NCBI RefSeq assembly: GCF_011299555.1
Contig: NZ_CP049857.1
Location: 4,216,001-4,280,000, forward strand
Direction of reading: 5' to 3'
Origin: Dysgonomonas sp. HDW5A
Lineage (GTDB): Bacteria > Bacteroidota > Bacteroidia > Bacteroidales > Dysgonomonadaceae
Length of the DNA stretch: 64,000 nucleotides
Shown here: piece after piece, positions 25,568 to 39,933 of the stretch
How the letters are laid out: each line of letters opens with the position of its first letter
How positions within the stretch are numbered: the stretch's first letter is position 1
Position numbers and translations under genes: made by a program
The notes under the pieces: generated by a model
The model's database searches: none
What the model saw: only the letters and a program-made list of their open reading frames with translations
Told to the model about the DNA's origin: nothing

Positions 25568-25644
25568 ATGATAATCAAATACCGGCTGTCGCTCAGTTAT
25601 TCTATAGAACGAATAAGTCCTTTATTTGTTTAGCTTATAAAATA

Positions 25645-25677
25645 GAGAAGGCTGTCATTTTCATGACAACCTCCCCT
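25645..25677 (-). terminator. Hairpin after the AAA ATPase operon
   Basis: GGCTGTCAT (25650-25658) can pair with ATGACAACC (25663-25671), with one G-U pair, around TTTC. A short T-rich tail follows on the minus strand. It probably ends transcription from the large ATPase operon. Confidence 0.5.
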
Positions 25678-25835: not shown

Positions 25836-28800
25836 TTATAATTCAAGATTATTGTTACCGGTGTATTTTAAGACTTTCTTGATGCCATCGAGATTATCGT
25901 TAAACTGAGCCAGCTGAGCGATAACTTGTCCGATTTCATTATCCTTACTTATTCCCGCTAATTTATTATTTTTATTAAATACTTCTTTAATATGTTTCCA
26001 TCTTTCGACTTCGGAAAAAGTAAGTTGCCCGGCAATTTCTTTCAACCTCAACAAATTCGACTCACTGTCAGAAGTTAAGGTTTGTGCCTCGCTAATGTAA
26101 TGAGATAGAATAAGCTCTTCAACCTCTTTCTGATTCATCAGCGGAACAATCTGGCAAACCATTTTATTCATATTCCGATACGAACCTTGCAATTTAAAAG
26201 GAGGTTCTACACGATAAGCATCTTGTGTGGCTGCACTTGATATATAATTTTGATTTACTTTAAGTACAATATCCCTTACTTTTAAGCTGCTTTTGGCGAC
26301 TGCGATGAAGTCATCTACATCTTGTTGTGTATAATTACCTTCCAAATCGGGCATATCCTCACTCCTACTCTCAATATATTCAATTAAATTATAAAAGTCA
26401 GAGAAACTACGTCCGGCTATCTTTTGTAAATAAGGGTTCTCTATAATTGCATTTTCGAGTAAACTTAACTTAAATAAATGATCCGACGTACCTATCACAT
26501 CTCCTAGATTATATACATCCGCACGATTGGCTAGCATATCGGGGATCTGAAATTTATCGCCACTTTCGGTATAAGGATTACCCGCCATAATGACGCAGAA
26601 ACGTTTTCCTCTCAAATCGTAGGTCTTACTCTCGCCTTCAAATATACCATCCATCTTACGCTGCCCATCAGCTAGAGATATAAATTTTTGTAAAAATTCT
26701 GAGCTGCAATGCTGTATATCATCTAAATATAGCATTACGTTGTCAGCCATTTCAAAGGCAAGATTTATTTTTTTCAATTCCTCACGTGCTCCCGAGGTTT
26801 TAGCTTCTGCCGGATCAATAGATGTTATAGAATGCCCAATGGTTGGTCCATTTATTTTCACAAAATTCAAACCCATCGTTTTAGCTAAATACTCCATAAG
26901 GGTAGTTTTACCGTATCCGGGAGGGGAAACAAGCAGCAACATTCCCATCCTTGAGGTACGCTTATTTTCACCTGCTACTCCCAACTGTTTCGTCAGATTA
27001 GAACCGATCAAAGGCAGATATACTTCATTGATTAATTTATTTCTGACAAAAGAGGTCAAAACCTTAGGATTTAGCTCATGCACCTTTAATGTCTTTTTAT
27101 AATCAGAGACCAATCTTTCTTTTAGCTCAGAAAAACGATTGTATGCAGGTACATTATCAAGAGTAAAAGATCTCATTTTTCTAATAAACTCATGATAATC
27201 TATCACATAGTGACCATTATCCATTACACCATGGCTTCCTCTCAACTCATTAACATCTAAGATATCAGACGCAATCGTTAATGAATACGACTGGTTCTTC
27301 AGCAACAACAGGCAGGCTGTTTCCTCTACATACTTATTATATAGGGAATAATCATCAGACAATTCGACAAAAGATTTTAGCCAGTTCTGAACTAAATAGA
27401 ATCTGTCTACAGGATTAAATGATTCATTACGAACATCTTCTTCAAAATTATTCGATAATTTATTTTTATCTAAATATTCGACAAAAAATTTCCTCAAATT
27501 TTCAGATTGCTTGCTATAGCTTAAGGACATCAAATCTGAAAATTCTTCAAACAAATAATTGGCAATTTGTTGTTCGAAGCCAATAGGTACAGTAAAATAT
27601 GTATTCCACGATTTAAACAGACCTATAATCCGATCTATCACATATTGATAATTTGTTGAGCCGGGGAACGCTTTCAATACAATATTAGCTGAACTTATTA
27701 GCTTTGACAGATGCTCTTTCTCCTCCGCTTTCATCATATACCAGAAAAGTTGTGCTGCAACCCTCAAACGGGGAGGATAAGCCAAGACTCCTAATTGATA
27801 ATGAACAGATTCCAAACAACGGAAAATATGTAAAGCATCGTAATCGTGTACTCCTTTTAGATACGATTCTGAATAGTTTTGTTCTACTCTTTTAGATATG
27901 AAATCATTCAGATCAAAATCTTTAGATTTTTGTCTCTCCAGAAATGCCAAATACGCCAAATACTCGGATCTATATACCTTCGAATTTTCGGAAACAATTT
28001 CTTGCTCCCATAAATCTTTGTGTTTATAGATTTCATTTTCTTTCAGCTCATGATAGAAGCTCGTTCCGGTTAGATGATAGAAAAGCCTATCCTCTTTACG
28101 CACAACAGTCAAATCAAGCGATTGTCTGTTTACTGCAAACTTATAACTGCCTAATGATATTATATTTTCGCCATCAACAAACAGTTCATTTTTGTCTTTT
28201 AGTATACGCAGCGAATCTTCTAGGGAGGTTTTTAGGCTGTTTTCTAGATTTTCAGCCTTTGATACATCTCCAAGCTCTTTCAACTCTTCAATCAGTTTGC
28301 GGATCTTGTCGATCATCAGATCTGTAGAAAAGAATGCTTGTATTTCTTCTTTTGTTTTAAAAGATTGCGCTTTATTCTCTACATTCTTTAAAATGCGAAG
28401 ACCGATTTGCTCCAATGCAGATGTCCGCTTATTTATCTGCTCAATCAATTGGGCTTTCTTTCCATCGAAAGCCTTTACCAGCTCGCTCCTTTTATCGGAA
28501 ATTTTAATAATAAACTCATCAAAATCGGCAAACTTACTTTCCAGTTCTTCAACCTGTACACTAACCTTAGTAAAGTATTCGTCACATTTTTCAGGAGAAG
28601 TAGCCAAGTCCAGAAAGTTGACAATGCTTTGCTCCAACAAAGTTAATTGGGCACGAAAATCAGCCACCGATTCTTTGTTCTTCAACGAATCGATCTGTCT
28701 TTTGAGTTGTGCCCGAACTTCATTCAGAGAAGAAAATATGACAGATATCTTTTCCACAATACGGGTAGCCTGTGTCGTATCATCAATCTTTAGGCTATTC

Positions 28801-30701
28801 AGAATGTCAATCAGCAGTTCCAGTTCTGACGAAATCGATTTGCAATTAGTATCAATCTTATTGGCGTCAATAACTTTTGTAACCAATTGGACTTGTTCTT
28901 TTTCGATACGAACCTTTTCTTCATAAGGGAATAACGCCTCATCTCGAAGAAGAAATTCTACCGTTCTATCCGATAGTTTTCCATTAGTGGCAGCTAATTG
29001 CTCTTTAAGATCATTGACATTATTTAAGTCAATGTATTTGACATTAGCCAATTCAATAACTTCACCTTGCAACTTGCGTGTTTCAGCTAACGATTTAACT
29101 AACTTATCTAGTGTATCAAACTTTGCATTCTTGATACTAAACAACAAGCCTTCTACTTTCTCTTGAATAGCAATCAAAACAGCCAACGAATGTCGCTTTT
29201 GCTCCTGAACCTTTTCAAATTCATCAATAGCTGTATTAGCTATTTCTTTTATCTGAACAAGAGGCTCGGCTATCGAATATATTTCCTTGTTGGATGCCCA
29301 GAAAAAAGCATCTACAATATCGTTTGACTTCTTTACAATATCGCTGTACAATCCTTCATAAGAGTCTTCCTTATTTATAAGATAAATCACCTCCTGACAT
29401 TCTGCCATTGCTTTCACAATATCCTTATTACCTATTTTATAAAGTAAGTTATCGGTCTTCTCGATATTTTCAATTAACTCTCTCTGATAGGGTGTTTTCC
29501 AGATTTGTACCTGATGATGCTTTGTTGCTTCATTTTCGGAACGAAAATATATTAACGAGCCATCCTTAAAAAAAGTAAAGCCATTACATACAATGGGAGT
29601 TTCAACTTGCTGCCTAATTATATTATACGACATCAAGACATAAATATTCCGTTCGTTTTGATAGAAAATAAACAAATAATCTTCACCATTAGGAGAGGGT
29701 ATTTTTCGAATAAATTCAAGATCTGTCAATTCACTCTCAAAAACTTTGTACTCTCCATTCTGCAAATAATATCCATTAGGGAATATTACCCCATGATTAT
29801 CGGGTAATAATACCCCAATATCATTTAATGCCTTTATATTATGTACCTCTTTTGTTCGGGTATTAAATACAAAGGCTCTAAAATCCTCCTGATAAGGTTT
29901 TATTCGAATTAGGATTAAATTACCCAAATCAGCATAATAATACTCAGCATCATCCAATTGCTGATCTTTGTTCTCTACAGCTTCCGAATATATACCTTTT
30001 CCTGTTTGCGTATTATCTTCTATCTTAAAAGTAATATCGCCGCCCATGGCTTCAATAAATACTTTATCCTTAATAGAAATATGTGGATAAACCCCTAAAC
30101 GACGATCTTCCAGCGTGGTCTTAATCCATTTGAATTCATGCTGAGGAGCTTTAGTCACCTCATGAATACTCCTGTCATCCTGATAAATGAGTTTATTTCC
30201 TTTAATCAGCCATTTAAAAGCTTTAGCGTCAGCTACAGTTTTTCCGGTTTGAAAAATCATATACAGATAATTCTCCGTTCTTCTGTATCTTGAGAAAATA
30301 GAATCGCGATAGTATTTATAGAGATTATTGTAGTCGTTAATAAAATCTGGATTGCTGATTAGCTCCAAGGGCTGCGGTATAAACTGATTGTCTTCAAATA
30401 AGTATATACTAAAAACGTCACTTAGCTGAATATCCGAACGCAATCCGAAATGAACGTTATAGCCGAAAATACATAGATTATCAAGAGCCATAATACCTCT
30501 TGATACACAATTATTCTCGGTACTGATGCGCTGATTGGCAATCAAAGAAAAATCAGTTGTATTAAATACTTCCTTGCGGGCTTCGTTTAACTGATTCAAG
30601 CGCTTTTGAAGTTCTTCGCGCTGAGTCAGTAAACGTTTTCTTATTATCTCATATGTTCCTGCATCAAGTGTCTCAGCAGATCTATCCTCTGTGTCTTGCA
30701 T
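25836..30701 (-). CDS. Giant AAA+ ATPase with N-terminal beta-rich and central coiled-coil regions ('DNA repair ATPase' type)
   Basis: A 1,621-residue protein and the last gene of the PspA/flotillin operon. Layout: a charged helix (about 15-45), a beta-rich region with repeated strands suggesting a propeller (about 60-440), a very long coiled-coil-forming middle (about 440-870), an alpha-helical region, then an AAA+ module. Walker A is PPGYGKTT near 1258-1268, Walker B VMLYLDDIQH near 1322-1331, and a sensor-1-like VIMAGNP near 1372. Databases call relatives 'DNA repair ATPase', but nothing here shows a DNA role; the neighbours point to membranes. A remodelling function on PspA or flotillin assemblies is inferred. 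Confidence 0.75.
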   Translation of the reverse strand: MQDTEDRSAETLDAGTYEIIRKRLLTQREELQKRLNQLNEARKEVFNTTDFSLIANQRISTENNCVSRGIMALDNLCIFGYNVHFGLRSDIQLSDVFSIYLFEDNQFIPQPLELISNPDFINDYNNLYKYYRDSIFSRYRRTENYLYMIFQTGKTVADAKAFKWLIKGNKLIYQDDRSIHEVTKAPQHEFKWIKTTLEDRRLGVYPHISIKDKVFIEAMGGDITFKIEDNTQTGKGIYSEAVENKDQQLDDAEYYYADLGNLILIRIKPYQEDFRAFVFNTRTKEVHNIKALNDIGVLLPDNHGVIFPNGYYLQNGEYKVFESELTDLEFIRKIPSPNGEDYLFIFYQNERNIYVLMSYNIIRQQVETPIVCNGFTFFKDGSLIYFRSENEATKHHQVQIWKTPYQRELIENIEKTDNLLYKIGNKDIVKAMAECQEVIYLINKEDSYEGLYSDIVKKSNDIVDAFFWASNKEIYSIAEPLVQIKEIANTAIDEFEKVQEQKRHSLAVLIAIQEKVEGLLFSIKNAKFDTLDKLVKSLAETRKLQGEVIELANVKYIDLNNVNDLKEQLAATNGKLSDRTVEFLLRDEALFPYEEKVRIEKEQVQLVTKVIDANKIDTNCKSISSELELLIDILNSLKIDDTTQATRIVEKISVIFSSLNEVRAQLKRQIDSLKNKESVADFRAQLTLLEQSIVNFLDLATSPEKCDEYFTKVSVQVEELESKFADFDEFIIKISDKRSELVKAFDGKKAQLIEQINKRTSALEQIGLRILKNVENKAQSFKTKEEIQAFFSTDLMIDKIRKLIEELKELGDVSKAENLENSLKTSLEDSLRILKDKNELFVDGENIISLGSYKFAVNRQSLDLTVVRKEDRLFYHLTGTSFYHELKENEIYKHKDLWEQEIVSENSKVYRSEYLAYLAFLERQKSKDFDLNDFISKRVEQNYSESYLKGVHDYDALHIFRCLESVHYQLGVLAYPPRLRVAAQLFWYMMKAEEKEHLSKLISSANIVLKAFPGSTNYQYVIDRIIGLFKSWNTYFTVPIGFEQQIANYLFEEFSDLMSLSYSKQSENLRKFFVEYLDKNKLSNNFEEDVRNESFNPVDRFYLVQNWLKSFVELSDDYSLYNKYVEETACLLLLKNQSYSLTIASDILDVNELRGSHGVMDNGHYVIDYHEFIRKMRSFTLDNVPAYNRFSELKERLVSDYKKTLKVHELNPKVLTSFVRNKLINEVYLPLIGSNLTKQLGVAGENKRTSRMGMLLLVSPPGYGKTTLMEYLAKTMGLNFVKINGPTIGHSITSIDPAEAKTSGAREELKKINLAFEMADNVMLYLDDIQHCSSEFLQKFISLADGQRKMDGIFEGESKTYDLRGKRFCVIMAGNPYTESGDKFQIPDMLANRADVYNLGDVIGTSDHLFKLSLLENAIIENPYLQKIAGRSFSDFYNLIEYIESRSEDMPDLEGNYTQQDVDDFIAVAKSSLKVRDIVLKVNQNYISSAATQDAYRVEPPFKLQGSYRNMNKMVCQIVPLMNQKEVEELILSHYISEAQTLTSDSESNLLRLKEIAGQLTFSEVERWKHIKEVFNKNNKLAGISKDNEIGQVIAQLAQFNDNLDGIKKVLKYTGNNNLEL

Positions 30702-30742
30702 ATACTGTTTTTCAAATGAAATTATCTCATCGGATTAATTAA

Positions 30743-30773
30743 GCAGAGATGCGATGTTTTATCACATCTCTGC
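30743..30773 (-). terminator. Strong intra-operon hairpin between flotillin-like and ATPase genes
   Basis: GCAGAGATGCGAT (30743-30755) pairs with ATCACATCTCTGC (30761-30773) over 13 positions, with one G-U pair on RNA and a 5-base loop. The tail on the minus strand is TTAATTAA, not a clean T-run. It may reduce read-through into the ATPase gene or act as a processing or stability element. Confidence 0.5.
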
Positions 30774-30792
30774 AAGAAAAAGACAAAGTCGT

Positions 30793-32979
30793 TTATGATA
30801 ACTTCTTATTGGATATCCCCAATGAATTTGACATATTAAGCAGATTGCTCAAAAATCCTTTATCCTCACTCTCGGTACTTTGACTTTGCATTTTCAAGAT
30901 AAGACCTGCAATACTCAGATTTTTAATATCTTCTGTTGATATATTGAATTTATTCACATAATATCTGATTCTGTCAAATAATTCACCTTCGGAACCATTT
31001 CCAATCAATGCTTTCTTTATTTGCTGAATATTTTCACTCTTATTCACCAAACTATCAAACCCTTTTGCATTTGAAACTTGCTTCACAATATTTTCGAAGA
31101 ACATGGTCTCTCCACCAACGATATCGATATCAGCAGATTTCAATGCCTCTGACAATACCTGTGCCTGTGCATCGGCAATATCTTTTTGGATATTGATTTG
31201 TGCCATTTCAACATCTTTTTCTTTTTGTAACTGCAATTTGAATTCTTCGTGGTCTTTTCCTGCACCATCCAGTTTTTTCATTGCTGTCGCTTTTTCTTCT
31301 ATACCCGTAGCTTCGGCTAGAGCTTTTTCTTTGGAAACTTCGGCTTCCATAAGACCTTCCTTACGTCTAGCCTCTGCTTTTGCTTCTATTCCTGCAGCTT
31401 CGGCTATCGATGTTTTCTCTATAATACTGGCTTGTCCGGTAGCAGAAGCAAATGCTTTTTCTCTTGTGATTTCAGCATCTACCAATCCATCTTTTCGCTT
31501 GGCCTCAGCTCTGGTTTCGATGCTGTAAGCTTCGGCTTTTGCTTTCTTCTCAATAATAGAAGCTTCTACAATACCTTGTTTCTCTTCAGCATCTGCTTTG
31601 GCTTTCATGATTTCTGCTTCCGCTAAACCATAAGTAGCATCTTCTTTTGCCTGAGCTTCGGCTAAAATTTTCCTTGCTTCGGCTTGTTTTGTTGACGCTT
31701 CTTTTTTTGCATCCGCATCTATCAACAATTGTTTAGCTCTTTCTTCTGCCGCTTTTTTATCAGCCTCGGCTCCTTTTACGGTTTTAATTAATTTCTCTTC
31801 CGCTTCCTGAGCAGCCATAGTTATACCTACTTGTTTCTGACGGTCTACCTCCCTGAAAGCTTCAATATCTTTGATATTTTGTTTTTCCTCAACTACTCCT
31901 TTTTCGAGCTGGACACGCTCACGGATTACATCCTGAATATTTTTCTTCTCAACTTCCAGAACACGTTCTTTTTCAATTTGAGCCAAAGTCACTATTCGTT
32001 CTCTTTCCGTTTGTTCTAATGCACGATCTTTTTCTACACGTTCCTTTTCGATTGCTTCTGTTCTTTCTTTATTTTTTTCAGCAATAATTATCTGACGGCG
32101 CTTATTTTCTTCCTGTATTGCCAAACTTTCGTCTGTTGATATTCTTACAGTTTCAGACTTCAATCGCTCTTCTTCTCTTACTTTCTGAATCTCGGCTTCT
32201 TCACGAGATTTCACATTATCTATCTCTCTCTTTTGTTTCTCTTCTTTTTCAGCTAATTGTCTTTCCAATTCGAGAATCGCTTCACGTGCTTCAACATTTT
32301 GCTTTTTTATAACTTTTTCTTCTTCTCTGCGAATTAAATTCGCATTGATATTCTGAGCAGCGGTCAACTCGGTAATCTTGCGGATACCTTCCGAGTCGAG
32401 AATATTTTCAGCACTCATATATTTCATCTCTGTTTGCTCCAGATAATCTATCGCACAGTCATCCAAAATATAACCATTCAAATCGGTACCTATAATATTT
32501 ATGATTTCGTCTCTAAATTCTCTACGGGCTTCATATAATTCTATAAAATCGAACTTTTTACCTACCGTTTTTAAGGCTTCCGAAAACTTGGCTTCAAATA
32601 TATTTTTAAGTGTTTCTGAGTCACTGGCACGTTCACAGCCCAGTGTTTGAGCTACATTGATGACATCATTTACTGATTTATTGACCCGAACAAAGAAAGC
32701 AACCTTAATATCTGCTCGAATATTGTCTTTACAAATCAATCCGTCATGCTGCATTCTTTCTATTTGAAGTTTTTTGACTGAAATATCCATTATTTCCATT
32801 TTATGGAAAATAGGAACTACATACATTCCTTTATTAAAGGCAACATTAGTTCCACCGACACCGGTACGAACGATAGCCTTACCTTGAGGTATTTTTTTAT
32901 AAAATGATGCTAAAATGCCTAAAAGCACAAGCAAAACAAACAGGACTGAGCCTACAAGAATGATAATAATGTGTTCCAT
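30793..32979 (-). CDS. Flotillin-like SPFH/band-7 membrane protein
   Basis: A 728-residue protein: N-terminal membrane anchor (about 3-27), an SPFH/band-7 domain (about 30-210, with KIPQGKAIVRTGVGG and FEAKFSEALKTVGKKFDF), then a very long charged, Glu/Lys/Ala-rich coiled coil with AEA-type repeats (about 215-620), and a globular C-terminal region (IVGGETMFFENIV). This is the YqiK/FloA/flotillin-2 layout; such proteins form oligomeric scaffolds at membranes. It is longer than typical bacterial flotillins (about 500-550). Upstream are DUF1449 and PspA partners, downstream the AAA ATPase. Confidence 0.88.
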   Translation of the reverse strand: MEHIIIILVGSVLFVLLVLLGILASFYKKIPQGKAIVRTGVGGTNVAFNKGMYVVPIFHKMEIMDISVKKLQIERMQHDGLICKDNIRADIKVAFFVRVNKSVNDVINVAQTLGCERASDSETLKNIFEAKFSEALKTVGKKFDFIELYEARREFRDEIINIIGTDLNGYILDDCAIDYLEQTEMKYMSAENILDSEGIRKITELTAAQNINANLIRREEEKVIKKQNVEAREAILELERQLAEKEEKQKREIDNVKSREEAEIQKVREEERLKSETVRISTDESLAIQEENKRRQIIIAEKNKERTEAIEKERVEKDRALEQTERERIVTLAQIEKERVLEVEKKNIQDVIRERVQLEKGVVEEKQNIKDIEAFREVDRQKQVGITMAAQEAEEKLIKTVKGAEADKKAAEERAKQLLIDADAKKEASTKQAEARKILAEAQAKEDATYGLAEAEIMKAKADAEEKQGIVEASIIEKKAKAEAYSIETRAEAKRKDGLVDAEITREKAFASATGQASIIEKTSIAEAAGIEAKAEARRKEGLMEAEVSKEKALAEATGIEEKATAMKKLDGAGKDHEEFKLQLQKEKDVEMAQINIQKDIADAQAQVLSEALKSADIDIVGGETMFFENIVKQVSNAKGFDSLVNKSENIQQIKKALIGNGSEGELFDRIRYYVNKFNISTEDIKNLSIAGLILKMQSQSTESEDKGFLSNLLNMSNSLGISNKKLS

Positions 32980-33044
32980 AAAGGTTTTTTATTTATTTAG
33001 TTAGAATTATTCATGTGTTGCTGATTACAAATAGGTTTGTAATC

Positions 33045-33743
33045 TTAATAAGTATCTTTAATTACATAGTATATATGTTTATCGGGTACTTCTTCGGTGA
33101 TTATTACCGTGTCTCCATATTTAATAGGTTCTCCATTAAGACTAATAACATTTAACTTAATCGGGTTTCTATTTACCAGAAATTCAGCAGTCCCCACTTT
33201 CTGTCCCTCTATATTAGAAAGCATTTTACCTGAGCATCCAAAGAAGTCTGTAGCTTCTTCTCCCTGATAATTTATCTCTTTAAAAAGTTTTGCCATAGGA
33301 GTGGTTGCCACCTTTGTCAAAAAAAATCCAACAATGACCAAAGGTAATAATACAAAAACTGACCTCCATCCTAAATGATCAACATGAAAGAAATGTGTTG
33401 TAATGAGTGACCCTATCCATAATAGAAAAATAAAAGTGGATAATACCAACATAAAAGGCACTTGTCCTACGTTTATAAATGACAAACATTTTAACAGTAT
33501 TCCCTGAGGAACTTTCTCTACTACAATATGACTATCGGTATCCACATCCGCTACATCAATTTCAATATCGGGAACTTCAACATCGACATCTACTTCCGGT
33601 GAAAAGTTAATATCCAAATCAATATCATCAAAACCAATGCCTCCGATCAGGACAAATAACCAATAAATAGCTATCACTAACATCAACACGGTCATGATCC
33701 CGTTAGGAAGTGGGTGAAATAAAGTATATAAAAAGTCTGTCAT
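33045..33743 (-). CDS. DUF1449 / OB-fold NfeD-like membrane protein (YqiJ type)
   Basis: A 232-residue protein with hydrophobic segments at about 15-37, 95-117 and 128-150, a very acidic stretch between the first two (DDIDLDINFSPEVDVDVEVPDIEIDVADVDTD is composed of alternating D/V/E), and a C-terminal beta-rich OB-like domain (about 165-230; ending VPDKHIYYVIKDTY). This fits the YqiJ/NfeD-like partners encoded beside flotillins, thought to act with SPFH scaffolds. The acidic repeat is striking and might bind cations; that is inference. It is 18 bp after pspA and 65 bp before the flotillin gene. Confidence 0.78.
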   Translation of the reverse strand: MTDFLYTLFHPLPNGIMTVLMLVIAIYWLFVLIGGIGFDDIDLDINFSPEVDVDVEVPDIEIDVADVDTDSHIVVEKVPQGILLKCLSFINVGQVPFMLVLSTFIFLLWIGSLITTHFFHVDHLGWRSVFVLLPLVIVGFFLTKVATTPMAKLFKEINYQGEEATDFFGCSGKMLSNIEGQKVGTAEFLVNRNPIKLNVISLNGEPIKYGDTVIITEEVPDKHIYYVIKDTY

Positions 33744-33761
33744 TGTACTATTTTTAGAGTA

Positions 33762-34463
33762 TTATTGCATTCCCAATTTTCGCTTAATCTCATCAAGCTC
33801 CGAATCTACATTTTGCTCATTCGCTCCAATCGCTATATCTATTTCGTCATCAACAGAAATATTACATTTATTCAATGCAGCATAAGCCTGAAACAACGCG
33901 TCCTCTTCCGCAATTTTTTCTTTTATTCGCTCCAACATATTTAAAGTGCTGTCACTATCTATTTTAGCCATTTGCTTATTCACTTCTTGAGTAACTTTAC
34001 TTATACGGATTTTCGCCTTTAGAGTTTTCAGCTCATTTTCCCACTTGGTAATATTAAACTTAAGTATTTCAATATTTTTCTGAATATCCGATGCTATATT
34101 TTCATGCTCAATACGCTGCACATCCAGTTCATTTATTTCTGAAATCAATTGCTCTTTGCGAAGCAAAGCTTCCTTTGCCAATCTTTCTGCTTGAGCTATA
34201 TCAATGTCTCCATTCTGAGCTTTCGAAATCAGTATAACAGCCTTATTCCCATAATCCTGAGCCTCTGATCTTTTTTTCTCTTTTTCGTTTTTAGCACGGA
34301 TGACCATTGCTTTAACCTTCGCTAAAGACTCTAAAGTTAGAGTCAGATTCTCTTTCATTTCCACAATCCCGGTCTCCGTAATTTGTACAGGATCTTCAAC
34401 GCCATCTAATACCGCATGTATCTCAGCCTGACCAATTCTAAATAGTCTTTTGAATATATTCAT
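33762..34463 (-). CDS. PspA/IM30 family envelope-stress protein
   Basis: A 233-residue, almost wholly helical protein, with the N-terminal amphipathic helix (MNIFKRLFRIGQAEIHAVLD) and the long hairpin of PspA/Vipp1/IM30 proteins, ESCRT-III relatives that coat and remodel damaged inner membrane. The family positions MNIFxRxxxxxxAxxxxxLdxxEDP are visible. No PspF, PspB or PspC gene is nearby, so this is not the E. coli-type psp operon. It lies 4 bp after the YbjN-like gene. Effector role under membrane stress is likely. Confidence 0.9.
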   Translation of the reverse strand: MNIFKRLFRIGQAEIHAVLDGVEDPVQITETGIVEMKENLTLTLESLAKVKAMVIRAKNEKEKKRSEAQDYGNKAVILISKAQNGDIDIAQAERLAKEALLRKEQLISEINELDVQRIEHENIASDIQKNIEILKFNITKWENELKTLKAKIRISKVTQEVNKQMAKIDSDSTLNMLERIKEKIAEEDALFQAYAALNKCNISVDDEIDIAIGANEQNVDSELDEIKRKLGMQ

Positions 34464-34467
34464 AATC

Positions 34468-34866
34468 TTATTTTTTAGCGAACTCTATAATTTGCTCGTA
34501 ATACTCACTCAGCAACAACCCCAAAGAATTTAAGGCTCCTTCAAACTCATTTATACCCATATTTTCTATCTGCATGGTATATCTGAATATAACTTTCGTT
34601 CCATCTTCATTCAAAACAAATCCTCCATGTATAATATCCCTATTCTTAATTAATAAAGATTTCAGAATTTCTTTATCATCATTCTTCAATGTGAAAATAA
34701 ATTGTTCTATAATAAGAATAGGAGGAGCTACTCCAATAATCAAATTCTTGATTCCATCGGCTTCACTTTCTATACAGAATACGCCTTTAGCTTCATCGTG
34801 ATACGTAATCGAATAGCCCAACTTCAAAATATATGTTTCTATCTTTTTAAAATACATATCATTCAT
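34468..34866 (-). CDS. YbjN/Tir-chaperone-like protein
   Basis: A 132-residue protein without membrane segments. The pattern resembles YbjN or type-III-secretion chaperone-like folds: KKIETYILKLGYSITYHDE, then ILKSLLIKNRDIIHGGFVLNEDGTKVIFRYTMQIENM, then a C-terminal helix pair. Such proteins are often encoded beside PspA in Bacteroidetes and proteobacterial yjf-type loci, and may act as adaptors for PspA. It is first in the operon, 147 bp from the divergent XRE gene. An in-frame ATG at 34857 is an alternative start. Confidence 0.72.
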   Translation of the reverse strand: MNDMYFKKIETYILKLGYSITYHDEAKGVFCIESEADGIKNLIIGVAPPILIIEQFIFTLKNDDKEILKSLLIKNRDIIHGGFVLNEDGTKVIFRYTMQIENMGINEFEGALNSLGLLLSEYYEQIIEFAKK

Positions 34867-34919
34867 TATATATAAGTAATAAACGTAGCTTGTTTCATTA
34901 AGAAATTATGAGGGCAAAA

Positions 34920-34951
34920 TTTGTATTCTGCTAATTAATATCCTATATTTG
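34920..34951 (+). promoter_or_regulatory. Promoter of the XRE regulator gene
   Basis: TTTG at 34920-34923 and TATATTTG at 34944-34951 with 20 bases between them fit the Bacteroidetes consensus exactly. A start site near 34958 leaves a leader of about 55 bases. It lies in the shared region with the PspA operon. Confidence 0.7.
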
Positions 34952-34972
34952 CTAATATTTTTAGCTAAATTA
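34947..34972. promoter_or_regulatory. Possible operator (imperfect inverted repeat)
   Basis: ATTTGCTAA and TTAGCTAAAT lie as imperfect inverted copies around a 6-base T-rich centre. They overlap the -7 element and the presumed start site of the regulator gene, as expected for autorepression. Weak because the region is very AT-rich. Confidence 0.35.
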
Positions 34973-35013
34973 GATAAATAATTTAACTATACAAACAAAA
35001 AATATATTTTTTT

Positions 35014-35688
35014 ATGAGTAAAGTTGGAAAAAATATAAAAAAAATAAGAAATGTAAAGGCTTTGAGTCAACAGGCATTTGCTGATTTATTTCAACTGACA
35101 AGAGGAAATATATCTTCATATGAAGAGTTTAGAGCCGAACCCAAAATAGAAATCATTGTAAACATTGCTAAATATTTTGGCATTCCGTTAAATGACTTTA
35201 TTTTGAAAGAATTATCAGTCAACGAACTCCTGCATTACAATACAGAGCTGGTATTAGAAACCGAGAAACTAAAGAAAACCCACCACTTTATAGAGGTTCC
35301 TTATGTATCTTCGTTAGATATTGTTGATTATGAAGCACATTACAATGACGAGAACTTCATACACAATCTTCCCCATATTAGTATTCCGAGCAGTGCCAAG
35401 TCTAAATTGATAGCTATTGAGATACAAGATTCGGAATCGCTGCCTTTAGGTTTTAACTTTAAGAATGGAGATATTCTAATTTATGAGCAAGTAATAAGAG
35501 AAAATATTCATAGAATAGAAAACAAACTCGGATTAATGGTCGATACTGATGGTATAAAATCAGGTGTATATAAAGAACATGAAGGCAAAATATTTTTATC
35601 GCTTAATGAATGGGTAAAGTATCCTTTTGAAATAGACTCACCTGCTCATTATTGGTTGCTCAGGGCATTATTTACTCAAATTATATAA
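35014..35688 (+). CDS. XRE-family regulator with a degenerate S24/LexA-like C-terminal domain
   Basis: A 224-residue protein with an N-terminal helix-turn-helix (about 5-62; ALSQQAFADLFQLTRGNISSYE) and a C-terminal beta-rich domain (about 105-215) recalling S24 peptidase/CI repressors: AIEIQDSESLPLGFNFKNGDILI corresponds to the VxGDSMxPxxxxGD region, and LMVDTDGIKSGVYKEH to the segment holding the catalytic Lys. In my alignment the serine remains but the lysine position appears replaced, so self-cleavage is doubtful. It is divergent to the PspA operon and is its likely regulator. Confidence 0.75.
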   Translation: MSKVGKNIKKIRNVKALSQQAFADLFQLTRGNISSYEEFRAEPKIEIIVNIAKYFGIPLNDFILKELSVNELLHYNTELVLETEKLKKTHHFIEVPYVSSLDIVDYEAHYNDENFIHNLPHISIPSSAKSKLIAIEIQDSESLPLGFNFKNGDILIYEQVIRENIHRIENKLGLMVDTDGIKSGVYKEHEGKIFLSLNEWVKYPFEIDSPAHYWLLRALFTQII

Positions 35689-37131: not shown

Positions 37132-38712
37132 TTATTGTTCAGGTAAACTCTTCCACTTTCTTAAGATCACTTGGATGAAAAACCACATAGAAACAAAAGT
37201 CAAACATATATTAGCCCAAATAAACTCTATTATATGCTCATCCATGAAAAGGTAAGTTTCGTATAAGCCATTATTGTTATAGGTATAATCATTATAAGAG
37301 TATTGATTATGCCCTATAATATAGATAGCCATAAAAATAAGTGCAGGCACAGCAGGCACAAACCAGACGAGATGATTCATATATATATCAGATCTGCCTT
37401 TCGCCTTTCTATTTATATTCTTTCTCAATACAGATATCAATTCTAAAGAAAAGATTGCCAGTAAAACAAAGATATAAAATAGAGGACCAAGTATATCCAC
37501 GCGAAATGGACTTGATATTGCAAAAGATAATATCCCATTAATAAACAAAATCAGACCTATTGATATTAATGCTATAAGCCATGATTTTCCGGTAGTAGAC
37601 CTAAAAGAGAATACCAATAAAGAAATAGACAGCGCCATTGTTATGCTAATCATAAAAAATGCCAGACTTTCCTCTTTATCAACATATGCATTCATTATTT
37701 TATTATAAGAGCGTTCTAATTCATCATAAGAGACGTAATAACCATTAGGAGTGTTATCTCTTGAATTATAGTAATAACTATACTCATTTTTAGCCTCTTC
37801 ATCTTCGTAATTATAGGATGTAATTAAGTTAAAATCCCCTACCGGGTATTTCGATGGATTATACACCAACTGCAACCACTGATCTTTAGTTAAATTAGTT
37901 TTCAGATTGTGCTTATTTTGCAATGCGATGAAATTATCCATTAATCGACTTATTTCCTCTTTATTTTGTTGTCTCAACCATTTTTTGACAGTATCTGCAT
38001 CACGTATTGTAAAATCAGATTTCGAAGAAATATAAAACTGATTCAGAGAACCATAATTCAATAACGACAGTTGAGCAAAATCAGGATAATCGGGATAGTA
38101 CAAATCATTCGATTCTGCATATTCTACGGGATCAACGTATTCTGTTACAGGTGCTGAGCTATCCAAATTTTCAGAGTGTTTATCCGGTGCAGATTTCATA
38201 TAATAATCAGAAGGTAAATCTGTAGGATATTCCTGATAATAACTAGTTTTATCTGTAGGGATCAATATTCTAATCAGATTAAGAGTTTCAACAGCTTTAA
38301 TCATTTCCTGCTTACTTACGTAGGATCTAACTTTTGAAGCAGAACCTTGATAATAAGAGAAAGGGAATAATATGAATCCACAAATAATAACGAATGACAA
38401 AACCCACTCTAAATACAATCCCCCGCTACTTTTAGGGTAAAACGATTTGAATGCATTATTTTTAGAATAAAAAACTAACCATATAATAAATAATAAAATA
38501 GCAGTCAGGACTGCTCCCATATAGATCAGTGCCGCTCCGGAAAAAGAACTGCTGTAACTATATCGATCTGAAAAATCTATTTTTGTTAGAAAATATCCTG
38601 CAAGAAAAAATAAAATATTAATTACAACCGCTCCCAAAAAGGCTGGAACGATCTTTATATTCCATAAAAGAGGATAATTTAAGAGGAGATATTGTTGGAT
38701 TTTCTTTAACAT
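37132..38712 (-). CDS. Polytopic membrane protein, probable ABC transporter partner
   Basis: I do not recognise a named family. The 526-residue protein has three N-terminal helices (about 24-45, 60-83, 103-124), a large extracytoplasmic region (about 130-345) rich in Tyr, Ser, Asp and Asn, and a second group of helices (about 350-520). Because it lies 60 bp downstream of an ABC ATPase gene with no other membrane partner, it is probably the membrane subunit. The split layout, with a large outer domain between helix groups, resembles some ABC-2-type exporters but the fold is not evident. Confidence 0.6.
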   Translation of the reverse strand: MLKKIQQYLLLNYPLLWNIKIVPAFLGAVVINILFFLAGYFLTKIDFSDRYSYSSSFSGAALIYMGAVLTAILLFIIWLVFYSKNNAFKSFYPKSSGGLYLEWVLSFVIICGFILFPFSYYQGSASKVRSYVSKQEMIKAVETLNLIRILIPTDKTSYYQEYPTDLPSDYYMKSAPDKHSENLDSSAPVTEYVDPVEYAESNDLYYPDYPDFAQLSLLNYGSLNQFYISSKSDFTIRDADTVKKWLRQQNKEEISRLMDNFIALQNKHNLKTNLTKDQWLQLVYNPSKYPVGDFNLITSYNYEDEEAKNEYSYYYNSRDNTPNGYYVSYDELERSYNKIMNAYVDKEESLAFFMISITMALSISLLVFSFRSTTGKSWLIALISIGLILFINGILSFAISSPFRVDILGPLFYIFVLLAIFSLELISVLRKNINRKAKGRSDIYMNHLVWFVPAVPALIFMAIYIIGHNQYSYNDYTYNNNGLYETYLFMDEHIIEFIWANICLTFVSMWFFIQVILRKWKSLPEQ

Positions 38713-38772: not shown

Positions 38773-39933
38773 TTATGACAGGAAGAAACGGCGTGTAGAG
38801 TTAGATATATTTCTGAAATAATTCAATGGTATATGATTATCTACAATAACCTGGAGAAATCGTTCTTGTGAAATATTTGCAGGGAAAATAGCAATATAGG
38901 TTCCCCCTTTTATTTGTAAAGTTTCCAGTTCCAGATTAGAGAATACAGTACGAAGCTCTTCTTGGCTCCAGTCACTTTCAAATTCGACAATAAACTTTGC
39001 GACCTCTTTAAATTCAGCAACACCTTCTTTTACATCTGCATTTTGAGGTTGTCCCTTTTTTAAGAAAATAACCCTATCCGATGTTTTTTCGACTTCATAC
39101 AATTGCTGAGAACTCAAGACTATCCCCAATGGACGGAATGGTGATTTTGCAATATCTCTAAAATCATCTAAGACGACTTGTTGAGCCAAAATATCAAGAT
39201 TAGCAAGAGGCTCATCAATCAACAGAAGTTTAGGCTTACGAAGTAACATTCTTGCTAACTCAAACCTCATCTTATAACCTGATGACAGACTATTCCAATT
39301 CAGATTACGATATCCCCTCAATCCCATTCGTGCTATAACAAGCTGAACCAGGTTTTCGTTTTCCTCTCCTAAGATTCCATAGGAAGCCGCAGTAAATTGC
39401 AAATTAGATAATAATGTTCCATGCCAATCTTTAGTTCGTTGCGGTATATATATCAACTGGGAACGAAGATCATAATTATCTTTATATTCAAATAAATAAT
39501 CGATTTTGCCATTTGTTGGAGCTAATTCACCACACAGTGAGCGTAATAATGTTGTTTTCCCATTACCATTCTCTCCTACCAATCCAATTATTTCGCCCTC
39601 AGAGATATCGAAGCTAATTGGTCCTAAAGCAAAATAAGATTGAGTATAAGCTTTTATTAAATTCTGAACAATAAGTAGTTTTTCACCCTGACTATTCCCT
39701 TTTTTCTGTAAAAAAGCAAAAAGATCGTCCAATAAAATTTTAAATCGTTCCCGTATTTCTGGAATATTAGTTTGATTCAGCTCTAGCCAATCGAGTAAAT
39801 ACACTGTCTTTTTGTAATAAGACAAATCTTCTGTATCTAATGCCAAATCAATTATTTTTTTCAGAAGATTTGGATAATCTTCATATTCTAACAATTGGTA
39901 TATGTTTTTGTAATGAGTTTCAAAAAGAGACAT
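38773..39933 (-). CDS. ABC transporter ATP-binding protein with N-terminal extension
   Basis: A 386-residue protein. A helical extension of about 95 residues (YKNIYQLLEYEDYPNLLKK) precedes a standard nucleotide-binding domain: Walker A VGENGNGKTTLL near residue 128, Q-loop near 165, signature LSSGYKMRFELARMLLRKPK, Walker B LLLIDEPLANLD, then an H-region (SSQQLYEVEKTSD, with Gln where the switch His often sits). The signature is LSSGY rather than LSGGQ. A C-terminal domain of about 80 residues follows. Part of an operon with the 526-residue membrane protein; substrate unknown. Confidence 0.85.
   Translation of the reverse strand: MSLFETHYKNIYQLLEYEDYPNLLKKIIDLALDTEDLSYYKKTVYLLDWLELNQTNIPEIRERFKILLDDLFAFLQKKGNSQGEKLLIVQNLIKAYTQSYFALGPISFDISEGEIIGLVGENGNGKTTLLRSLCGELAPTNGKIDYLFEYKDNYDLRSQLIYIPQRTKDWHGTLLSNLQFTAASYGILGEENENLVQLVIARMGLRGYRNLNWNSLSSGYKMRFELARMLLRKPKLLLIDEPLANLDILAQQVVLDDFRDIAKSPFRPLGIVLSSQQLYEVEKTSDRVIFLKKGQPQNADVKEGVAEFKEVAKFIVEFESDWSQEELRTVFSNLELETLQIKGGTYIAIFPANISQERFLQVIVDNHIPLNYFRNISNSTRRFFLS

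What the first reader, a model, noticed from the sequence alone, without database searches (positions are those of the whole stretch)
25836..35688. PspA-flotillin-DUF1449-YbjN operon with a giant AAA+ ATPase and a divergent XRE regulator
Five same-strand genes with short spacers (4, 18, 65 and 91 bp) combine three membrane-remodelling themes: PspA (ESCRT-III relative), an SPFH scaffold with its OB-fold partner, and an AAA+ motor. ESCRT-III systems elsewhere need an AAA+ motor (Vps4), so a bacterial set with its own dedicated large ATPase is a plausible self-contained membrane-repair or vesiculation machine. PspA/flotillin partnerships are known. The 1,621-residue ATPase as partner and the regulator are much less described.
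Basis: partly seen in the sequence, partly recalled or inferred. Interest (0 to 1): 0.78.

Follow-up and report, generated by a model that had tools for sequence, protein, structure and literature searches.

The report
Flotillin stress operon with self-marked repressor
A bacterial membrane-stress operon whose gene set is already in print appears to be controlled by a little-described repressor whose binding site also lies inside the repressor's own gene, where it constrains codon choice across distantly related bacteria.

Summary
The operon is real and its coordinates are right. Its gene set was described in 2024 (PMC11237479, passages); the 'YbjN' gene is a CesT/Tir-type protein. In 74 homologous loci with enough upstream sequence, the giant ATPase is always next to the flotillin-like gene (74) but next to PspA-CesT in only 60. 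'A Vps4-like motor for PspA' is not supported; a flotillin-centred motor with PspA-CesT as an add-on fits better.

The new part is the divergent regulator, present in 60 of those 60 loci. Its C-terminal part folds like lambda CI/LexA, and in the window copy the self-cleavage motifs are lost. A 21-bp palindrome beside its gene scores above the shuffle 99th percentile in 68 of 68 loci and touches a cesT-direction promoter in 56 of 68. A second copy lies inside the regulator's own coding sequence, in the codons ending its DNA-binding domain. Synonymous codons are frozen there, and codon 56 is nGC in 54 of 55 main-clade genes whether it encodes Gly, Ser or Cys. I infer repression at promoters plus an intragenic roadblock or loop anchor. 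No binding was measured. C.Kpn2I is a precedent.

The parts
25836..30701 (-). 1621-aa ATPase: DUF3686 (residues 30-467), DUF7902 (588-670), C-terminal AAA+ (about 1255-1378)
   Evidence: AlphaFold model of residues 838-1621, mean pLDDT 84.6
30793..32979 (-). 728-aa SPFH/flotillin-like protein, Band_7 near the N terminus then a long charged coiled-coil-like region
   Evidence: (Band_7 2.2e-14 on the N-terminal 210 residues)
33045..33743 (-). 232-aa membrane protein, YqiJ/DUF1449-like
   Evidence: YqiJ_N E 0.0012, below cut-off; homologue annotated DUF1449
33762..34463 (-). PspA/IM30 family protein
   Evidence: 3.4e-33
34468..34866 (-).
   Evidence: PF22550, 1.4e-48
35014..35688 (+). divergent regulator: XRE HTH (about 1-75) plus CI/LexA-like C-terminal domain without the cleavage motifs
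34948..34968 (.). intergenic operator: 21-bp imperfect palindrome
35164..35184 (.). intragenic operator-like site inside the regulator gene, over the codons for residues 51-57 (IAKYFGI)
34920..34951 (+). Bacteroidota-type promoter of the regulator gene (TTTG at 34920, 20-nt spacer, TATATTTG at 34944-34951), -7 box overlapping the operator
   Evidence: consensus form recalled
34965..34995 (-). Bacteroidota-type promoter of the cesT-first operon (TTTG, 19-nt spacer, TAATTTAG with one mismatch), -7 box overlapping the operator
   Evidence: consensus form recalled
25644..25677 (-). terminator-like stem-loop behind the ATPase gene
   Evidence: consensus match only

Best explanation
This is an inducible envelope-stress cassette. 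A flotillin-like scaffold with its YqiJ-type membrane partner forms a platform at the inner membrane, and the cytosolic ATPase (N-terminal DUF3686, C-terminal AAA+) acts on that platform or on proteins held there. PspA and its CesT/Tir-type partner are added in most Bacteroidota versions, giving membrane repair at the same site. Expression is set by the divergent regulator, a CI/LexA-fold repressor that has lost self-cleavage. It binds a 21-bp palindrome that overlaps promoter elements of the cesT operon (and in the window also those of its own gene), and a second palindrome inside its own coding sequence, where bound protein would block elongation through the regulator gene or anchor a loop. 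Shown by sequence: gene set, neighbourhoods, the two sites, the codon constraint. Inferred: that the regulator is the protein that binds both sites, that it represses, roadblock or loop, what inactivates it (a ligand, or binding to CesT/PspA), and what the ATPase works on.
For: Flotillin next to the ATPase in 74 of 74, YqiJ-like 73, PspA-CesT 60, regulator 62. Regulator in 60 of 60 loci with PspA-CesT, and still divergent in 2 loci that lack PspA-CesT (L089, L091), so it belongs to the whole unit. Operator: best site in the 200 bp beside the regulator gene above the shuffle 99th percentile in 68 of 68 (matrix trained on the same loci); with each clade left out of training it ranks 1st in 59 and 2nd in 9 of 68 whole loci, and 7 of those 9 are beaten or equalled with the full matrix by the in-gene site or rank first. 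Regions upstream of YqiJ in 11 regulator-less loci reach at most 9.7 bits. cesT-direction promoter touches the operator in 56 of 68 (shuffle mean 7.2, maximum 14 of 68). In-gene site: against 500 synonymous recodings per gene, p<=0.05 in 58 of 64 regulator genes (35 at p<=0.01), 53 of 64 at exactly offset 150. Codons 51-57 are the most conserved 7-codon window at synonymous level among codons 1-75 (mean excess 0.41, median 0.04; codon 56 identical in 100% of same-residue comparisons against 21% expected). Codon 56 is nGC in 54 of 55 main-clade genes: AGC 34, GGC 17, TGC 3. Prediction test in 101 genomes of the family: in-gene pattern in 7 genomes, once each, all DUF3686-bearing, reversed-pattern control 0; operator in 11, of which 9 DUF3686-bearing. 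Fold: lambda CI and phage repressors at E 1e-5 to 9e-4.
Against: No binding, expression or induction data. Repression is inferred from overlap with promoter elements. 12 of 68 loci show no such promoter at the operator, and for the regulator's own promoter the overlap is weak overall (9 of 68, shuffle mean 3.6, maximum 9). 6 of 64 regulator genes do not pass the recoding test. The Chryseobacterium/Flavobacterium clade lacks the offset-150 site (nGC in 2 of 13 genes outside the main clades) and has another at 302-323 (8 of 9 tested score >=16). Control genes also give some p<=0.05: CesT 6 of 62, PspA 5 of 62, YqiJ 7 of 64; two of the CesT cases are over-long ORFs that cover the operator, and three Flavobacterium cases share offset 178. 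Of 20 related regulators outside the operon none reached 16 bits in the gene, but three reached 15.1-15.7, two of them in the same HTH region. Helical phasing expected of a loop: p 0.03 for four clades picked after the fact, 0.45 for all nine groups. Chance with the full set of related sequences is overstated, because they share ancestry. pQBR103 carries PspA with the ATPase but no such regulator.
Confidence: 0.6

Rival explanations
1. One reading: PspA is the effector and the ATPase is its own Vps4-like disassembly motor, a bacterial ESCRT-III/Vps4 set.
For: PspA and ATPase share the operon in 60 of 74 loci; Vps4 is among the AAA+ fold hits (6oo2_C, E 1.1e-4); PMC11237479 also proposes ESCRT-like action for PspA with AAA+ partners.
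Against: ATPase without PspA but with flotillin in 14 of 74 loci and 5 of 7 plasmid loci. No MIT or Vps4_C domain listed. Among the 50 fold hits printed, the target-normalised TM-scores of CbbQ2 (0.61) and NorQ (0.51-0.55) exceed that of Vps4 (0.40). The model has a strand pair before sensor 1 (513-517, 520-524) like the pre-sensor-1 hairpin of the RuvB/MoxR/ClpX side of AAA+ (recalled classification).
Confidence: 0.15
2. The in-gene site is not an operator: the codons are kept for another reason (RNA structure, an internal promoter, translation speed), and the likeness to the intergenic palindrome follows from the conserved protein motif IAxYF(G/S)I.
For: The protein motif alone raises the expected score (mean of the recoded maxima 4.6 against about -4 for control genes); XRE proteins elsewhere share the motif, and two related genes score about 15 there.
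Against: 58 of 64 genes beat synonymous recodings. Codon 56 keeps GC while the residue changes among Gly, Ser and Cys. The matrix was trained on intergenic sites only. In the Chryseobacterium/Flavobacterium clade, where the site is mostly lost, another match sits elsewhere in the gene.
Confidence: 0.2
3. The regulator is an activator, or a dual regulator, of the cesT operon.
For: XRE proteins can activate (recalled). In many loci the operator touches the -33 side, where an activator could also sit (listings; sides were not counted).
Against: In the window and its near relatives the operator overlaps the -7 boxes of both promoters, a position typical of repressors (recalled).
Confidence: 0.2
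4. The cassette is a mobile anti-phage or toxin-antitoxin-like defence unit rather than a stress unit.
For: Patchy distribution (5 of 148 phylum genomes; 13 of 101 in the family), presence on 12 plasmid records, regulator N terminus resembling defence controllers.
Against: PADLOC gives no system for the five operon proteins, only weak AAA+ (mad8, 2.1e-4) and HTH matches; no match in 50,697 phage records; PspA, SPFH and YqiJ-type proteins are envelope-stress families.
Confidence: 0.1

Closest known systems
CesT/Tir-PspA + TM-band-7-flotillin + AAA+ + YqiJ/YuaF operon group of Ravi et al. 2024 (PMC11237479; passages seen)
   Same: Same gene combination; the paper also reports shorter operons without PspA, as found here.
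   Different: The main-text passages searched have no 'XRE' (0 occurrences) and I saw no regulator named for this group; supplements were not available. Operators and the in-gene site are not in the passages seen.
C.Kpn2I controller of the Kpn2I restriction-modification system (PMC6237814; abstract and passages seen)
   Same: A small HTH regulator that binds within its own coding region, acts as an elongation roadblock, and controls a divergent gene.
   Different: There the site lies at the start of the gene and is the only site; here there are intergenic sites as well, the in-gene site is about 150 bp in, in the HTH codons, and the protein has a CI-like C-terminal domain.
Lambda CI, phage 186 repressor and LexA (S24-type repressors)
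   Same: HTH plus the same C-terminal fold by Foldseek; CI and 186 repressor join distant sites by looping (recalled).
   Different: Cleavage Ala-Gly, and the catalytic motifs seen in Bacteroidota XRE-S24 relatives, are not kept in the window copy.
Bacillus subtilis PspA-YdjGHI (PMC8581546; passages seen)
   Same: An SPFH-domain protein and membrane partners needed to bring PspA to the membrane.
   Different: YdjI lacks a membrane anchor and the operon has no giant ATPase or divergent XRE regulator.
HflK/C-FtsH and other SPFH-AAA+ pairs (PMC2636767 and PMC13086221, passages)
   Same: An SPFH assembly paired with an AAA+ machine.
   Different: FtsH is a membrane protease; here the ATPase has no protease domain listed and is a different AAA+ family.

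Membership tests
CesT/Tir-PspA-flotillin-AAA+ operon (Ravi et al. 2024) | CesT/Tir-type gene followed by PspA | tested here: met
   (PF22550 1.4e-48, PF04012 3.4e-33)
CesT/Tir-PspA-flotillin-AAA+ operon (Ravi et al. [quoted passage not shown]
   Band_7 2.2e-14; TM and coiled coil judged by eye from the sequence, no predictor run
CesT/Tir-PspA-flotillin-AAA+ operon (Ravi et al. 2024) | AAA+ ATPase with N-terminal beta-propeller and coiled coil | tested here: inconclusive
   AAA+ and DUF3686 met; the propeller fold of the N-terminal part was not modelled here
CesT/Tir-PspA-flotillin-AAA+ operon (Ravi et al. 2024) | YqiJ/YuaF-type 3TM protein | tested here: inconclusive
   YqiJ_N E 0.0012, below cut-off; homologue annotated DUF1449
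YbjN family | match to the YbjN profile | tested here: not met
   Pfam scan at E<=1 lists only CesT_Tir_1
Vps4-type ESCRT-III ATPase | MIT domain and Vps4 C-terminal domain | tested here: not met
   neither listed at E<=1
Vps4-type ESCRT-III ATPase | AAA+ cassette of the classical clade | tested here: inconclusive
   Pfam AAA 2.9e-9 and AAA_5 5.4e-8; fold hits mixed, RuvB, FtsH, MoxR, Vps4; pdb_via not available
CI/LexA (S24) repressors | HTH plus S24-like C-terminal fold | tested here: met
   Pfam S24 not listed for the window copy, 7.7e-7 in the Hymenobacter homologue
CI/LexA (S24) repressors | self-cleavage motifs | tested here: not met
   alignment A5: the AAGYL/ASAGYL, GDSM and YKR segments of five relatives are not kept in the window copy
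Regulators that bind inside their own gene (C.Kpn2I-like) | operator within the coding sequence | tested here: met
   by sequence only:
Regulators that bind inside their own gene (C.Kpn2I-like) | binding stalls RNA polymerase | not testable with these tools
   needs in vitro transcription

The most novel reading that the evidence does not exclude
The DNA that encodes the end of the regulator's DNA-binding domain is itself an operator for that same regulator, kept through the divergence of at least twelve Bacteroidota groups by codon choice even where the residue changes. With the promoter operators it forms a two-point autoregulatory circuit (loop or roadblock) for an uncleavable CI-fold repressor that runs a flotillin-PspA stress cassette; where a clade lost the site, it gained another elsewhere in the gene.
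Probability: 0.55. Interest if true: 0.65.

Novelty: new variant of a known kind. Interest (0 to 1): 0.52.

Why it matters
The gene set has been in print since 2024 without, in the text I could search, a regulator or a known inducer. The operators give a direct way in: reporter fusions and regulator removal should reveal what switches the cassette on. The neighbourhood counts shift the question about the giant ATPase from PspA to flotillin. The in-gene site is a clean natural case of one stretch of DNA serving at once as code for a DNA-binding domain and as that protein's likely target, testable by synonymous changes alone.

Tried and rejected
YbjN label: rejected. Vps4 analogy: weakened. Defence system: PADLOC gave only weak AAA+ and HTH matches, and no phage record matched the ATPase. 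Rfam: no match in the window. My first impression that the regulators' C-terminal domains were unrelated (five sequences) was replaced after aligning 37: one fast-diverging domain, with the Chryseobacterium/Flavobacterium type left out of that alignment. Helical phasing as proof of looping: not supported over all groups. First matrix test is circular, since matrix and loci are the same; hence the leave-one-clade-out test. The Hymenobacter plasmid regulator (L099) was left out of the operator counts: its intergenic region does not show the palindrome and seems by eye to hold another one. Six of 80 loci were left out of neighbourhood counts for short upstream sequence. In L021 the regulator lies 1.9 kb from cesT. 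Structure searches with phmmer: none for the flotillin-like protein, only short Walker-region matches for the ATPase. Literature: searches (DUF3686, 0 papers) found no description of this regulator or its in-gene site in the held library; subscription papers and supplements are not held.
Full report
What is there. Reading the - strand: CesT/Tir-type protein, PspA, YqiJ-like membrane protein, SPFH/flotillin-like protein and a 1621-residue ATPase, with gaps of 4, 18, 65 and 91 bp; a divergent 224-residue regulator lies on the + strand. Pfam confirms PspA (3.4e-33), DUF3686 with AAA in the ATPase, Band_7 in the N-terminal part of the flotillin-like protein, and an XRE-type HTH. The 'YbjN' gene is CesT_Tir_1 (1.4e-48). 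The YqiJ/DUF1449 assignment rests on a sub-threshold match (0.0012) and on a homologue's annotation. The source is a Dysgonomonas-like member of the Bacteroidota: the best match is a Dysgonomonas contig, 91% identical over the ATPase.

Already in print. [quoted passage not shown] The gene set is therefore not new. The word XRE does not occur in its main text.

Who goes with whom. In a phylum sample of 148 genomes DUF3686 occurs in 5 and PspA in 63. CesT_Tir_1 occurs in 23, and all 5 DUF3686 loci hold the six-gene set with the regulator divergent. Seven other loci with the CesT-PspA pair (L010-L016) lack the ATPase nearby. A wider scan kept the best 80 of 521 confirmed relatives. Of the 74 with at least 6.5 kb upstream, the flotillin-like gene is present in 74, the YqiJ-like gene in 73, PspA and CesT in 60, and the regulator in 62. 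Eleven loci have only YqiJ-flotillin-ATPase, one only flotillin-ATPase, and two have the regulator but not PspA-CesT. On an ATPase tree the presence of PspA changes at least 8 times (one FastTree tree, midpoint-rooted). Twelve plasmid records hold the ATPase; of 7 inspected, flotillin is adjacent in 7, YqiJ-like in 5 and PspA in 2. The converse is looser: 14 of 148 genomes have a relative of the flotillin-like protein and 9 of those lack the ATPase. The ATPase thus looks like a partner of the flotillin platform, with PspA-CesT as a frequent addition.

The ATPase. The model of residues 838-1621 (39 sequences, mean pLDDT 84.6) has an AAA+ domain. Walker A, Walker B with two aspartates, and a sensor-1 asparagine are invariant in five homologues (motif names recalled). 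Foldseek lists Ycf2-FtsHi, RuvB, NorQ, FtsH, CbbQ2 and Vps4 among its best; target-normalised TM-scores are highest for CbbQ2 (0.61) and NorQ (0.51-0.55) and 0.40 for Vps4. This does not settle the clade, but gives no reason to call it Vps4-like.

The regulator. Its model (mean pLDDT 89) matches lambda CI, a lambda-186 hybrid, the 186 repressor and LexA (six hits at E<=0.001; full-length TM-scores are modest, 0.3-0.4, as expected if the two domains are placed differently). Aligned with five Bacteroidota XRE-S24 relatives, the window copy lacks the AAGYL/ASAGYL cleavage segment and the GDSM and YKR motifs, so cleavage as in LexA is unlikely. In the five-genome alignment the HTH is well kept and the rest diverges; 37 sequences align throughout.

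Operator. Beside the regulator gene lies an imperfect palindrome with consensus TTTGCTAAAAATATTTGCAAT. In 68 of 68 loci the best site exceeds the 99th percentile of dinucleotide shuffles (57 exceed the shuffle maximum), but that matrix was trained on the same loci. With each clade withheld, the site ranks first in 59 and second in 9 of 68 whole loci of 10-25 kb. Looking at those 9 with the full matrix, the in-gene site is top in 7 (L020 tied) and the intergenic site in 2. Eleven loci without the regulator reach at most 9.7 bits upstream of YqiJ. In the window's own genome the pattern TWGCTAANNNNATTWGCAA occurs exactly once, at this promoter; five sites with one mismatch lie elsewhere, against three for the reversed control. 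A Bacteroidota-type promoter in the cesT direction touches an operator in 56 of 68 loci (100 shuffles: mean 7.2, maximum 14); for the regulator's own promoter the figure is only 9 of 68 (mean 3.6, maximum 9). In the window both promoters overlap it. Several Bacteroidales loci carry two sites 40 bp apart.

The site inside the gene. Scanning whole loci showed a second strong site within the regulator ORF; in the window it is 35164-35184, over codons 51-57, IAKYFGI. Because conserved protein can mimic a site, each gene was compared with 500 synonymous recodings from its own locus's codon usage: 58 of 64 genes reach p<=0.05 and 35 reach p<=0.01; the best site is at offset 150 in 53 of 64 and at 302-323 in 9 (Chryseobacterium/Flavobacterium type). 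Six genes fail (L024, L048, L062, L075, L077, L089). Controls at p<=0.05: CesT 6 of 62, PspA 5 of 62, YqiJ 7 of 64; two CesT cases are over-long ORFs over the operator and three Flavobacterium ones share offset 178, unexplained. Between twelve clades, synonymous identity at codons 51-57 is the highest of all 7-codon windows in codons 1-75. Codon 56 is AGC 34, GGC 17, TGC 3 and AAC 1 in 55 main-clade genes, so DNA is kept while the residue changes. In 13 genes outside those clades nGC occurs in 2.

Independent checks. Among 20 related regulators outside this operon, most with an intact AGYL-type motif, none reaches 16 bits in the gene; three reach 15.1-15.7, two of them in the same HTH region, and two have upstream sites of 18.0 and 21.4 bits, so a weaker ancestral form is possible. 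In 101 genomes of the family the 21-base in-gene pattern occurs once in each of 7 genomes, all DUF3686-bearing, with none for the reversed control. The intergenic pattern occurs in 11 genomes, 9 of them DUF3686-bearing, and in all 7 genomes with the in-gene pattern (Fisher p about 1e-7 and 2e-8, not corrected for kinship). Of the 13 DUF3686 genomes 6 lack the in-gene pattern and 4 lack the intergenic one.

Mechanism. The spacing from intergenic to in-gene site is 172-174, 191-195, 203-205 or 213-217 bp in the main clades and 367-384 bp in the Chryseobacterium/Flavobacterium type, with an outlier at 180/220. Four clades agree in helical phase (p about 0.03, chosen after the fact); all nine groups do not (p 0.45). 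Looping is therefore open. A roadblock within the regulator gene needs no phase and has a precedent in C.Kpn2I (PMC6237814, passages). I read the system as negative autoregulation plus repression of the stress cassette, relieved by an unknown signal, perhaps through the CesT/Tir-type protein or PspA (inference, with PspA-PspF of E. coli in mind, recalled). For the effectors, B. subtilis YdjI, which brings PspA to the membrane (PMC8581546, passages), is the nearest tested parallel.

Verdict. Gene set: known. Giant ATPase as PspA's Vps4: not supported. Regulator with promoter and in-gene operators: well supported by sequence, untested at the bench, a new variant of a known kind.

Noticed in passing
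L098:986-14190: On plasmid pQBR103 two kinds of PspA operon are joined: YjfI-PspA-rhomboid-DUF2491-DUF350-DUF1190-glutathionylspermidine synthase, then a YqiJ-like gene, SPFH and the ATPase, without the regulator found here.
   Followed up: partly
L099:4362-4570: The Hymenobacter plasmid version has a LexA-family regulator in the same place, but its intergenic region seems by eye to hold a different palindrome (GCTCAA...TTGAGC), suggesting a changed DNA specificity.
   Followed up: no
L105 and L120: Two XRE-S24 regulators outside this operon have upstream sites scoring 21.4 and 18.0 bits with the operator matrix, so relatives may use similar operators.
   Followed up: no
L079, L087, L088 (CesT gene, offset 178): Three Flavobacterium cesT genes carry a weak operator-like match at the same offset that beats synonymous recoding.
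   Followed up: no
L025: In Dysgonomonas capnocytophagoides the ATPase appears as two ORFs of 499 and 1047 residues, so this copy may be broken.
   Followed up: no
window 37132-38712: A 526-aa protein, membrane protein by eye, without any Pfam match at E<=1, beside an ORF that looks like an ABC transporter ATPase (38773-39933).
   Followed up: no
L022, L028, L042, L021: Tandem operators 40 bp apart beside the regulator gene in several Bacteroidales-type loci; in the window the first of the two seems eroded.
   Followed up: partly
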